Source: Nannobrachium achirus (taxonomy: Eukaryota > Chordata > Actinopteri > Myctophiformes > Myctophidae). From it: a stretch of 64,000 nt of DNA. Positions within the stretch are counted from its first letter, which is position 1. Each line of letters starts with the position of its first letter. The DNA is taken from the NCBI GenBank assembly GCA_963921795.1, contig OY997656.1, positions 57,869,827 through 57,933,826 of the forward strand, read 5' to 3'. The position numbers and the translations under genes were made by a program. The notes below the pieces were generated by a model that saw nothing but the letters and a program-made list of their open reading frames with translations, was not told where the DNA came from and made no database searches. Shown one piece after another: positions 854 to 63,795 of the stretch.

Positions 854-1017
854 TCCAGATCAACGTGCGCGTGCACCACGGTCCGGACACCTCGGTGTAC
901 ATCCATCCTCTGGACCAATCAGAGGCCAAGCCCCCCCACAAGGCCATGACCCGCCTCCTGCCACAGAGACACAAACCCAAGGGGCGGTGCTTCCAGGAGA
1001 CCACGCCCAAACAGGCT
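854..1017 (+). CDS. ltbp3: ltbp3 exon A: pre-hybrid segment and start of hybrid domain
   Basis: The acceptor is GTCTTCCAG and the donor is GCT|GTGAGT. The exon enters in phase 1 and ends in phase 0. It encodes INVRVHHGPDTSVYIHPLDQ and, after a basic stretch (PQRHKPKGR), the first cysteine of the hybrid domain in the typical context RCFQET. The hybrid domain is an 8-Cys module of LTBPs and fibrillins. The His-rich HHGPDTSVYIHP segment is typical of the region before the hybrid domain in LTBPs. An alternative acceptor five bases downstream (TCCAG) is possible but would break the phase-1 entry. Confidence 0.85.
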
Positions 1018-1113
1018 GTGAGTGACACATCATACTCAAAATATAAAATTCTTAAATAAGAGACCACGCCCAAACAGGCTGTGAGTGCTACGTCATATAA
1101 AGTTCTTAAATAA
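998..1113 (+). repeat. Two-copy duplication of exon A tail plus donor
   Basis: The last 20 bases of exon A, the GTGAGT donor and about 40 intron bases recur once immediately downstream (1061-1113). A second potential donor, GGCT|GTGAGT, is created near 1081. Confidence 0.9.
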
Positions 1114-1208
1114 AGTTGTTTGAACTTTTTTTTATTTGTTTTGTAAAGCGACTTTGGGTACCTCGAAAAGCGCTATATAAGTTTGGTGTAGTATTATTAT
1201 TATTATTA
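1114..1208 (+). mobile_element. LINE/SINE 3' tail with (ATT)n end
   Basis: The segment GTAAAGCGACTTTGGGTACC followed by AAAGCGCTATATAAG and an ATT repeat matches the conserved 3' tail shared by many fish LINEs and their SINE partners, as I recall it. Only the 3' end is present. Confidence 0.6.
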
Positions 1209-2389
1209 TTGCGACCGTCAGGGAGCAGTTTACTATGAAAACCTCCACCGGCCGTCCGTCCGTCCGTCCGTCCGTCCGTCACACGTCACACGTCACACCT
1301 TTGCCCTGCTTATATCTCCGCATCAGTATGACATCACACCACATGTGTACACAAACCTTTGTGTACGTTGCTGTGGCAACAGTCTGTTGTTGCTGGTTTG
1401 TTAGTGTAGATTAGCAACCACCTTAGCAACCATGGTTTTACCCTAGCAACCAACTGTTTACCCTAGCAACCAACTGTTTACCATAGCAACCATGTTTTTT
1501 TACCCTAGCAACCAACTGTTTACCATAGCAACCAGATACGCAGAGCAGGGATCTCCATATATGGGCATAAACAGGTGACATCACACTGATGTCAGATACT
1601 CAGAGCAGGGATTTCTCCATAATATATGGGCATAAAAGGGATTATGTTAGGGATCTCCATATATGGGCATAAAAGGGATTCTGTTAGGGATCTCCATATA
1701 TGGGCATACAAGGGATTCTGTTAGGGATCTCCATATATGGGCATAAAAGGGATTCTGTTAGGGATCTCCATATATGGGCATAAAAGGGATTCTGTTAGGG
1801 ATCTCCATATATGGGCATAAAAGGGATTCTGTTAGCTGTTAGTGATCTCCATATATGGGCATAAAAGGGATTCTGTTAGGGATCTCCATATATGGGCATG
1901 AAAGGGATTCTGTTAGGGATCTCCATATATGGGCATAACAGGGATTGTATCCCAGATGATGCCCTGTTAGGAGATCCACACTAACAGAATCCATATATGG
2001 TCCTACCGACAGCTGCTATAAGCCAACCCTGGCGATAAGGTCTGAGTCGAAGAAATGCTTCTTTCCTGGCAAGAATTGCCCCTTTATACTGTAGGGCTCG
2101 TTTGTGTATTGTATGACATCACGCCACATCATCGGCTGAGGACTGTGTGATGTCATCATATCTCCATATATGGAGACATAAGTTGCTCATGCCCAAATAT
2201 GGGCTGGTGAGGTCAGACTTAGTGTGATGCGTAGGTTATCTCCATATATGGAGATTCAACTTCAATGAGTAACCATGGCAAACTGTCAACTACCCGTATG
2301 TCTTGATAATTGGTAAAACAAACTTTTGGCCTATTTGTGGAGATAAGCGACCAACGGTCGCTTATCTCCCGATTAGGGAGTCTTACTGG
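1209..2389 (+). mobile_element. Helitron-like non-autonomous element, copy 1
   Basis: It starts TTGCGACCG and ends with two stem-loops (GATAAGCGACC/GGTCGCTTATC, then TCCCGATTAGGGA) followed by TTACTGG. Copy 2 at 57878 has the same ends. The element lies between an A and a T with no evident target duplication. After the start come CCGT repeats and CACGTCACACCTTTGCCCTG, which copy 2 shares. The middle is replaced by tandem repeats. No protein is encoded. Helitron assignment is inference from the 3' hairpin, the CTGG end and the A/T target. Confidence 0.55.
1586..1950. repeat. 37-bp minisatellite with CCATATATGG palindrome
   Basis: About nine units contain GGGATCTCCATATATGGGCA. Each carries CCATATATGG, which also fits the CArG-box pattern for serum response factor, though here it is probably only part of the repeat. 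Further single copies occur to about 2260. Confidence 0.9.
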
Positions 2390-2640
2390 TTAGTATTAGT
2401 AGTAGTAGTAGTAGTAGTAGTAGTAGTAGTAGTAGTAGCAGTGTTAGTTTTGTCAGACAGTTTTGATTTAGTCTTATACAATTTTGAATTAGTCTTAGTC
2501 CGGTTTAGTCTTCTGAAATTGTTTTAGTCTAGTCTTAGTCTAGTCAACTAAATATCAAAACATTTTAGTCTTAGTCTAGTTTTAGTCTTTTGGGATTAGT
2601 CTTAGTTGGAAGTTGGAAGTTAAGCAATGTTTTACAGGCC
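2390..2640. repeat. (AGT)n and imperfect TAGTCT repeats
   Basis: A run of AGT triplets (2396-2440) is followed by degenerate TTAGTCTTAGTCTAG repeats. No gene is seen. Confidence 0.85.
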
Positions 2641-2772
2641 GGGTACACATTTTAGTGTATGGGAGGAGCTTACAGTACATGTACAGTATGTAGCAACATA
2701 TTTGTTTTTGTAGGCTAATTTCTGATTTGGGCCTAACTATAGGTTAGGCCTAAATGAGTTAACTAACTGCAT

Positions 2773-2846
2773 GTCTCTCTCTCTCTCTCTCCCTCTCTTT
2801 CTAACTGTCTGTCTCTCACTGTTTCTCTCTCACTGTATCTCTCTCA
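2773..2846. repeat. CT-rich tract forming exon B polypyrimidine region
   Basis: CTCTCT runs interrupted by ACTGT lead into the acceptor CTCTCTCAG, so this repeat acts as the pyrimidine tract of exon B. Confidence 0.85.
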
Positions 2847-62381: not shown

Positions 62382-62605
62382 GTTTAATTTTTCACAGTCA
62401 CATTTTGGCAGTTATCATCATTACTAGTGTTATGTTGTGCCACCTACTGGCCATTCATGCTCAGAACACCCAGGGAATCTATGATGTGCTTACTTGACCC
62501 TTCATGTTATGATGCAGTGTTTTCCTTGGTTCATTATGAAATATGAGACTGCATCTGGGTCAGTCTGTCCCTTTAGCATCTGAGTCCGTCTGTCTGCCTT
62601 ATTAT

Positions 62606-62997
62606 CAGGGGCGTCACACCAAATCCTGGGCCCTGGGTACAAGGATTCACTGTGGGCCCCCCATGAATGTTAGCTATTGAAAAATAGCAGATATATTTTT
62701 GAAGAAAAAAAATGTGAAAATGTGTGCAAGAAACCCATGTTTCCTGTCAGTGGTGCTCAAACCTTTTCATGTCAAGGACCCCCAAGATGATATGTATTTG
62801 GTCACGGACCCCCATCTCAAAATATTTAGTTCCAGGGACACATTTTCACGACTTTTCAAAAATAGCAGATCTACAAGCTTGCAGCGCGGCACTCGGTGCC
62901 GTGCTGTGAGCTTGTATATCTGCTATTTTTCAATAGCTAAAGTTACTAGGGGCCCTAGTAACTCAGTCCCACTCCCCCCCCCCTTGTGATGCCCCTG
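62606..62997. mobile_element. hAT-like MITE with CTTATTAT duplications
   Basis: The ends are CAGGGGCGTCACACC and CCCTTGTGATGCCCCTG, flanked by CTTATTAT at 62598-62605 and 62998-63005. It interrupts the 36-bp minisatellite. It contains a GTGCTCAAACC...GGACCCCC remnant and a full hairpin core. Confidence 0.93.
62858..62932. repeat. Recurrent hairpin core
   Basis: AAAAATAGCAGATCTACAAG through GGCACTCGGTGCC to CTTGTATATCTGCTATTTTT; the inner stem differs from other copies (GCAGCGCGGC). Confidence 0.9.
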
Positions 62998-63150
62998 CTT
63001 ATTATAATACATCTGAGTCAGTCTGTCTGCCTTTTTATAATACATCTGAGTCAGTCTGTCTGCCTTTTTATAATACATCTGAGTCAGTCTGTCTGCCTTA
63101 TTATAAAACATCTGAGTCAGTCTGTCTGCCTTATTACAATACATCTGGCC
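62998..63150. repeat. 36-bp minisatellite, about 4-5 copies
   Basis: The unit is TACATCTGAGTCAGTCTGTC plus TGCCTTTTTATAA. One unit lies left of the hAT-like insertion (62570-62600). Confidence 0.93.
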
Positions 63151-63188
63151 CTCATTATAGCCTTATTACAATACATTTCCTCCCCTAG

Positions 63189-63359
63189 TGGTGGCGCTAG
63201 AGATGGAGGATAAGAAGGAGTGCTATCTGAACCTGGACGACACAGTATTCTGTGACAGTGTCTTGGCCACCAACGTCACCAAGCAGGAATGTTGCTGTTC
63301 CATAGGGGTGGGCTGGGGAGACCACTGTGAGATCTACCCCTGTCCTGTCTATCATTCAG
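63189..63359 (+). CDS. ltbp3: ltbp3 exon R: second TB (8-Cys) domain
   Basis: The acceptor is CATTTCCTCCCCTAG and the donor is TTCAG|GTAACA; phase 1 in and out. It encodes [20 protein letters not shown] then [20 protein letters not shown] and [16 protein letters not shown]. Seven of the eight TB cysteines, the CCC triplet and GVGWG are present; the last cysteine should be in the next exon. This is the strongest evidence for LTBP3 among the paralogues. It is the last exon in the window. Confidence 0.96.
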
Positions 63360-63795
63360 GTAACACACACACACACACACACACACACACACACACACAC
63401 ACACACACACACACACACACACACACACACACACACACACACACACACACACTGTTCCATAGGGGTGGGCTGGGGAGACCACTGTGAGATCTACCCCTGT
63501 CCTGTCTATCATTCAGGTAACACACACACACACACACACACACACACACACACACACACACACACACACACACACACACACACACACACACACACACACA
63601 CACACACACACACACACTGTTCCATAGGGGTGGGCTGGGGAGACCACTGTGAGATCTACCCCTGTCCTGTCTACCATTCAGGTAACACACACACACACAC
63701 ACACACACACACACACACACACACACACACACACACACACACACACACACACACACACACACTGTTCCATAGGGGTGGGCTGGGGAGACCACTGT
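63293..63795. repeat. Exon R tail plus donor plus (CA)n, repeated
   Basis: The last 67 bases of exon R with the GTAACA donor and a following CA tract recur at 63453-63516 and 63617-63681, and a truncated tail copy is at 63763-63795. The exon-derived parts are almost identical (one T/C change, CTATC to CTACC). CCATAG at the head of each copy could act as a cryptic acceptor. Confidence 0.96.

What the first reader, a model, noticed from the sequence alone, without database searches (positions are those of the whole stretch)
854..63795. Minisatellites seeded by the gene's own splice junctions, across 11 of 18 exons
Exons A, B, D, E, F, J, L and P have intronic repeats made of the exon tail plus the 5' splice site. 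Exon R does too, with 65 bp of exon in each unit. Exons O and Q have repeats made of the 3' splice site plus the exon head. Copy numbers run from 2 to about 50. Independent seeding at so many junctions of one gene suggests a process that preferentially duplicates exon-intron borders, or tolerance of it, rather than random slippage. It creates well over 100 decoy splice sites within one gene. I know of no named class for this.
Basis: partly seen in the sequence, partly recalled or inferred. Interest (0 to 1): 0.85.

Follow-up and report, generated by a model that had tools for sequence, protein, structure and literature searches.

The report
Splice-junction minisatellites in LTBP3-like gene
In one LTBP3-like animal gene, ten of the 34 mapped exon-intron borders have been copied in tandem into the neighbouring intron, a known but rarely reported kind of repeat (called mirages in amphioxus), here unusually dense and probably ignored by the splicing machinery.

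Summary
Largely real. I mapped 17 exons of an LTBP3-like gene. Border copies lie in the adjoining intron at 10 of 34 junctions: donors A, B, D, E, F, K, O, Q; acceptors N, P. Naive overlap of junctions with arrays is at chance (7 of 34, expected 8.2), since arrays cover 24% of the window. With arrays collapsed to one unit, 7 of 33 families straddle a junction against 0.93 expected, and 10 of 17 donors have tandem duplication in the first 60 intron bases against 1.1 (none of 4,331 shifts reaches 10). Tandem duplication crowds exon ends, mostly donor sides. A named class exists: amphioxus mirages. About 75 copies keep a splice-site core, not well over 100. Decoys show no extra conservation, and 23 of 46 N acceptor copies lost their AG. 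Best reading: near-neutral minisatellites, tolerated because the exon-proximal site is used (no RNA tested). Whether a border hot spot or formerly short introns caused the crowding is open. No other gene could be searched.

The parts
854..1017 (+). exon A (LTBP3-like); donor GCT|GTGAGT
1060..1087 (+). second copy of exon A tail (21 nt) plus donor, offset 63 bp
   Evidence: 28 of 28 identical, score 56, best of 100 shuffles 22
594..735 (+). copies of the exon B border unit, upstream of exon A, running into (GT)n
2848..2953 (+). exon B (TB domain), donor CCA|GTAAGT
2938..3760 (+). border array B: 32-bp unit = 16 nt exon tail + 16 nt intron
   Evidence: 26 copies counted in 500-3800, those near 594-735 included, the true border excluded
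14088..14204 (+). exon D (EGF)
14201..14682 (+). border array D: 49-bp unit, 4 nt of exon (GTAG) + 45 nt of intron with the donor
16616..16771 (+). exon E (TB domain)
16767..16982 (+). border array E: 28-bp unit from exon tail; the middle copies lack about 10 bp next to the donor, the last copy keeps the tail
18626..18760 (+). exon F
18738..18925 (+). border array F: 67-bp unit with about 25 nt of exon tail
32165..32293 (+). exon K (EGF)
32286..32477 (+). border array K: 38-bp unit with 8 nt of exon tail
42132..42437 (+). N-family 28-bp array, exon head ATAGATGAGTGT; acceptor AG changed to AC in nearly all copies
44127..44531 (+). N-family 28-bp array, second block
46221..47031 (+). N-family array, 28-bp then 38-bp units (acceptor + 14 nt exon head)
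48398..48490 (+). N-family copies abutting exon N
48477..48599 (+). exon N (EGF), acceptor CAG|ATATAGATGAG
51279..51398 (+). exon O (EGF)
51441..51465 (+). second copy of exon O tail plus donor, 5-bp gap
   Evidence: score 31, best of 100 shuffles 24
54293..54834 (+). border array P: (TC)n + AG + exon head ACATAGATGAGTGTTCAGTG, 6 copies with an intact core
54835..54963 (+). exon P (EGF)
54983..57878 (+). 38/47-bp array in the intron after P; its 47-bp unit aligns from intron +7, so it abuts the donor without including it
63189..63359 (+). exon Q (TB domain)
63295..63762 (+). border array Q: about 65 nt exon tail + donor + (AC)n, 2.9 copies

Best explanation
These are mirage-type minisatellites: ordinary short tandem duplications (28-165 bp) that arose near exon ends, often spanned the exon-intron border, and then grew by slippage or unequal exchange. 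They are tolerated because a border copy lies on the intron side of the true site, so the splicing machinery, working by exon definition on 54-171 nt exons, still uses the exon-proximal site. Shown here: the border copies, the varied unit registers, the crowding of donor sides, the absence of extra conservation at decoy sites, and the stop or frameshift that use of the first decoy donor would cause. Inferred: slippage or unequal exchange as the engine, exon-proximal site choice, and near-neutrality. The crowding itself has two candidate causes that I could not separate: higher duplication or survival next to exons, or seeding while introns were much shorter.
For: 10 of 34 junctions have border copies above all shuffles. 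After collapsing, 7 of 33 TRF families straddle a junction, 0.93 expected, P 2e-5 by simulation; a Poisson tail with a slightly higher mean gives 1e-4. 10 of 17 donors have at least 12 duplicated positions in the first 60 intron bases, null mean 1.1, maximum 5 in 4,331 shifts (the cut-off of 12 is mine, and A just meets it). No fixed register: exon share 4 to about 65 nt. Decoy donors are not conserved above the rest in arrays B, D, E, F, K: mismatches 9 of 414 at splice-site positions, 13 of 412 in the exon part, 17 of 666 in the rest (the E set includes the exon's own copy). 23 of 46 N-family copies have lost the acceptor AG. For the 8 donor arrays, use of the first decoy adds an in-frame stop (A, F, K, O, Q) or a length not divisible by 3 (all but A). 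Donor borders outnumber acceptor borders 8 to 2 (Fisher P 0.057), as expected if upstream acceptors are harder to ignore. Amphioxus mirages were reported not to interfere with regular splicing (PMC3087553, passages).
Against: No RNA data: which sites are used is untested. Raw overlap is at chance. Fisher P for donor over acceptor is not below 0.05. If introns averaged about 600 bp or less when arrays were seeded, the count of seven is unremarkable (P 0.08 at 584 bp), and that of ten at about 350 bp (P 0.098). The gene was chosen because it looked striking, so P values are not genome-wide.
Confidence: 0.75

Rival explanations
1. Short ancestral introns: arrays were seeded at random when introns were about 120-600 bp, so many seeds touched a border; later transposons and array growth made the introns kilobases long.
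For: Transposon-like inserts interrupt arrays, so those arrays are older: 42438-44131 (ends TAGGGATG, 8-bp flank ATGTCCAC) and 47032-48397 in the N arrays, 57879-59000 and 59196-59655 (TTAA flanks) in the array after exon P (flanks printed, read by eye). The junction count becomes ordinary at mean introns of about 600 bp (seven families) or 350 bp (ten). With introns trimmed to 120 bp per side, circular shifts give P 0.12 for the donor zone, though that test is distorted by its own period.
Against: By binomial, donor-zone crowding (9 of 17 in +1 to +30) has P 0.014 if only 90 bp on each side existed and fades only at 60 bp per side (P 0.076). Best copies at A, B, K, Q equal the exon border exactly, so those seeds look recent. 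Arrays near exons are not older by internal identity than distant ones (medians 96 and 97, P 0.29; 11 and 13 TRF rows picked by hand).
Confidence: 0.35
2. A mutational hot spot at exon ends, for example from co-transcriptional structures or donor-site sequence, raises tandem duplication in the first 60 intron bases.
For: Duplicated fraction falls from 34-40% at donor-side 0-30 bp to 25% at 31-60, 10% at 61-120 and 2-3% beyond. Shift test.
Against: One gene only; no mechanism shown; 7 of 17 donors have none.
Confidence: 0.3
3. Selection keeps spare splice sites or U1 binding sites near donors of small exons in large introns.
For: Donor bias 8 to 2; 40 decoys identical to a true donor in nine bases.
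Against: No extra conservation at decoy sites; half of the N acceptor copies lack AG; use of the first decoy donor would break the frame or add a stop.
Confidence: 0.08
4. Assembly artefact: copy numbers or whole blocks are inflated.
For: 1,689 bp repeated at 100% identity (42438-44126 and 44532-46220) and 285 bp doubled at 100%. In amphioxus one mirage was wrongly assembled in the draft genome (PMC3087553).
Against: Many independent arrays with different units and patchy variants, including longer periods of 196 and 352 bp; the amphioxus structure was seen in two haplotypes.
Confidence: 0.05

Closest known systems
Mirages of amphioxus (Adh3, globin BflGb6 and BflGb9: PMC3087553 passages; PGBD5, Adh, troponin C: PMC3902484 one passage)
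   Same: Minisatellite-like tandem duplications of an exon-intron boundary, at either 5' or 3' splice sites, many copies carrying AG/GT signals, unit lengths 10-160 bp, turnover typical of tandem repeats.
   Different: Another gene and probably a fish (lineage not tested here); ten borders in one gene; up to 46 copies; splicing and allele variation not tested.
[quoted passage not shown] paper not held; that it is the 6-16/IFI6 gene is recalled)
   Same: A minisatellite that provides splice donors.
   Different: One gene; the title reports donors in the transcript, here use is untested.
Internal tandem repeats at exon-intron boundaries of human segmental-duplication genes (PMC2812944, passages)
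   Same: Repeats of about 30 bp on average, some at exon-intron boundaries.
   Different: There they change the transcript or form new introns; here the exon set reads as a standard LTBP3-like frame.
Sparus aurata myostatin-2 intron 1 (PMC3045353, passages)
   Same: A fish gene with a tandem block at the 5' end of an intron.
   Different: One or two copies of about 150 bp in one intron; no border copy is described in the passages seen.
Intron gain by tandem genomic duplication (PMC3443670, passages)
   Same: Tandem duplication that copies splice-like sequence.
   Different: That duplicates exon sequence with AGGT to make a new intron; here existing borders are copied into existing introns.

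Membership tests
mirage minisatellites | tandem units span an exon-intron boundary | tested here: met
   10 of 34 junctions
mirage minisatellites | minisatellite-size units, both 5' and 3' borders possible | tested here: met
   units 28-165 bp; 8 donors, 2 acceptors
mirage minisatellites | many but not all copies keep AG or GT signals | tested here: met
   B 23 of 26 GT, N 23 of 46 AG
mirage minisatellites | regular splicing is undisturbed | not testable with these tools
   no RNA data; the standard frame is intact across 17 exons
mirage minisatellites | length varies between alleles or cells | not testable with these tools
   one assembly only
minisatellite giving alternative donors (IFI6 type) | transcript uses several of the donors | not testable with these tools
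   no RNA; use of the first decoy would add a stop or shift the frame
intron gain by tandem genomic duplication | a new intron arises inside a former exon | tested here: inconclusive
   exons follow LTBP3 order in a recalled human sequence, but intron positions were not compared with relatives

The most novel reading that the evidence does not exclude
The first 60 bases of introns, and with them the donor junction, are a genuine hot zone for birth or survival of tandem duplications in this genome, so that exon ends are routinely copied into introns and splicing runs against dozens of exact decoys per gene.
Probability: 0.3. Interest if true: 0.75.

Novelty: new member of a known kind. Interest (0 to 1): 0.5.

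Why it matters
A gene with 40 donor copies that match its true donors in all nine bases is a natural test of how splicing chooses among identical sites. It also puts a question in reach: do minisatellites start preferentially at exon ends, or do they only look so because introns were once short? Practically, such arrays can mislead gene prediction and short-read assembly.

Tried and rejected
Naive overlap of junctions with array spans: at chance; kept in the report, but judged the wrong null, since an array grows after it is seeded. Array after exon C (12116-12446) as a diverged border copy: rejected, 162 of 500 shuffles reach its score. Arrays near M (41426), H acceptor and Q acceptor as border copies: not supported (236, 196 and 45 of 500 shuffles); the exon tail of P does not match its intron array either (209 of 500). 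Exon I donor has one dispersed 22-nt copy at 28622 (score 34, best shuffle 24); left out of the count as not tandem. Circular shifts in introns trimmed to equal length (P 0.23, 0.16, 0.12, 0.011, 0.0056, 0.033, 0.0034, 0.0012 for 60, 90, 120, 150, 200, 300, 500, 1000 bp per side, 0.0005 untrimmed) are distorted by their own period for small trims; I used a binomial on the same null means instead. The long direct-repeat listing showed one array 20 times and was not used; the promoter scan has no bearing. Of TRF's 105 rows, 42 arrays of unit 19-165 bp were kept for and merged by hand into 33 families; rows of shorter unit, rows overlapping a kept array, and the 283- and 455-bp repeats were dropped. 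Borders A, O and P, which TRF does not list as minisatellites, were added only in the ten-border version.
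Full report
What the gene is. Translating the window and searching it with a human LTBP3 sequence recalled from memory gives a row of EGF-like and TB exons on the + strand. Splice sites chosen by GT/AG and phase give 17 exons, 854 to 63359, that join into one frame of 2070 nt with no stop (exon Q's start was corrected between the two). Pfam finds EGF_CA (9 stretches) and TB (3); the best solved relative is LTBP1. Exon G (21731-21784) is uncertain.

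Is the observation there? For each of the 34 junctions I aligned the border (50 exon + 12 intron bases at donors, 20 intron + 50 exon bases at acceptors) to up to 9 kb of the adjoining intron, and 100 shuffles of the query to the same. Donors A, B, D, E, F, K, O, Q and acceptors N, P beat all shuffles. E's best alignment stops one base short of the junction; its other copies cross it with a 10-bp gap (read). Exon share runs from 4 nt (D; 8 with one mismatch) to about 65 nt (Q). Donor I has a single dispersed copy and is not counted.

Counts of decoys. Donor copies identical in nine bases: A 1, B 17 plus 5 elsewhere, D 8, F 2, K 4, O 1, Q 2, that is 40 (two K matches and one A match elsewhere in the window are left out). 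Six E donors are altered (nine matches less the true donor and two distant ones). Of 46 N-family copies 23 keep AG; P has 6. Total about 75.

Chance. Arrays of unit 19-165 bp cover 15,450 of 64,000 bases, so 7 of 34 junctions inside array spans is what random points give (8.2 expected, P 0.71). I judge that test the wrong one, since exons cannot sit inside a grown array and growth follows seeding. Reducing each array to one unit leaves about 50 kb; 7 of 33 families straddle a junction against 0.93 expected (P 2e-5; Poisson 1e-4), and with A, O and P added 10 against 1.04 (0 of 200,000 draws; Poisson 6e-7). The result depends on intron size at seeding: for the seven, P is 0.028 at a mean intron of 761 bp and 0.08 at 584 bp; for the ten, 0.007 at 584 bp, 0.026 at 466 and 0.098 at 349.

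Where the duplications lie. A position-by-position measure (20 bases, at least 17 matching, a copy 15-200 bp away, one copy kept) shows a duplicated fraction of 0.34-0.40 at donor-side 0-30 bp, 0.25 at 31-60, 0.10 at 61-120 and 0.02-0.03 beyond; on the acceptor side 0.09-0.25 up to 60 bp, about 0.06 from 61 to 500 bp, and 0.002-0.02 beyond. With circular shifts, 10 of 17 donors have 12 or more duplicated positions in the first 60 bases (null mean 1.1, maximum 5 in 4,331 shifts), and 5 of 17 acceptors (null 1.1, P 0.004). The donors are A, B, C, D, E, F, K, O, P, Q; the acceptors A (a copy of B's border unit), H, N, P, Q. C and P have donor-side arrays that begin just after the donor without including it. 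So exon ends, mostly donor sides, are crowded with tandem duplications, and junction copies are the part of this that reaches into the exon.

How old are the arrays? Transposon-like inserts interrupt the N arrays (42438-44131 with ends TAGGGATG and 8-bp flanks ATGTCCAC, hAT-like; 47032-48397) and the array after exon P (57879-59000; 59196-59655 with TTAA flanks) (boundaries read by eye, family names are my inference). Those arrays are older than the inserts, so these two introns were shorter then. The first insert's 1,689 bp occur again at 100% identity with array on both sides, as unequal exchange between array copies would give, or an assembly duplication. Against great age, the best copies at A, B, K and Q equal the exon border exactly, and arrays near exons are no more diverged than others (rows picked by hand).

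How it probably works. A tandem duplication that spans a donor leaves the true donor nearest the exon and puts copies into the intron; for an acceptor the true site is again nearest the exon. If splicing pairs sites across the small exon, the exon-proximal site is used and the duplication is close to neutral. Extending to the first decoy donor would add an in-frame stop at A, F, K, O and Q, and a length not divisible by 3 at all but A. In arrays B, D, E, F, K decoy positions are not conserved above their surroundings (9 of 414, 13 of 412, 17 of 666), and half of the N copies have lost AG, so I see no sign of use or selection. Donors outnumber acceptors 8 to 2 (P 0.057), which would fit acceptor copies being less well ignored. 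None of this was tested on RNA.

What is known. [quoted passage not shown] also PMC3902484, one passage). The original Adh paper is not held. [quoted passage not shown] paper not held). Human repeats at exon-intron boundaries are discussed in PMC2812944 (passages), and a fish intron with a 150-bp block at its 5' end in PMC3045353 (passages). Ten paper searches listed no title or abstract start on such repeats in a vertebrate gene at this density; I saw only the top rows of the larger lists, and the library holds only open-access papers. High tandem-repeat density is known in Atlantic cod (PMC5241972, passages).

Limits. One gene from one assembly, chosen because it was striking; no relatives, no RNA, no other gene of the genome. 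The exon map is predicted.

Noticed in passing
42438-44131 and 44532-46220: hAT-like element (8-bp flanks ATGTCCAC) inside the N border array; 1,689 bp repeated at 100% identity with array on both sides, as if by unequal exchange or assembly duplication.
   Followed up: partly
47032-48397: Second transposon-like insert in the N array, ends CAGGCATGCAAAC and GTTTGCATGTCTG, flanked by CAGATA on both sides.
   Followed up: partly
57879-59000 and 59196-59655: Two inserts interrupt the 38/47-bp array after exon P in register; the second has TTAA flanks (piggyBac-like).
   Followed up: partly
594-735: The exon B border unit also stands upstream of exon A, fading into (GT)n: border repeats can move to another intron.
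   Followed up: no
8496-10120: 50-bp array with 17 donor-like CAGAGTGAGTAG copies, not matched to any exon found in the window.
   Followed up: no
737-839, 16506-16600, 31956-32152, 34630-34826, 41034-41075: GT or GT/GC microsatellites end within about 20 bp of the acceptors of exons A, E, K, L and M.
   Followed up: no
35772-40839: Intron after exon L holds nested 455-bp and 1.5-kb duplications at 71-97% identity.
   Followed up: no
58009-58576: 285 bp doubled at 100% identity inside the insert at 57879-59000.
   Followed up: no
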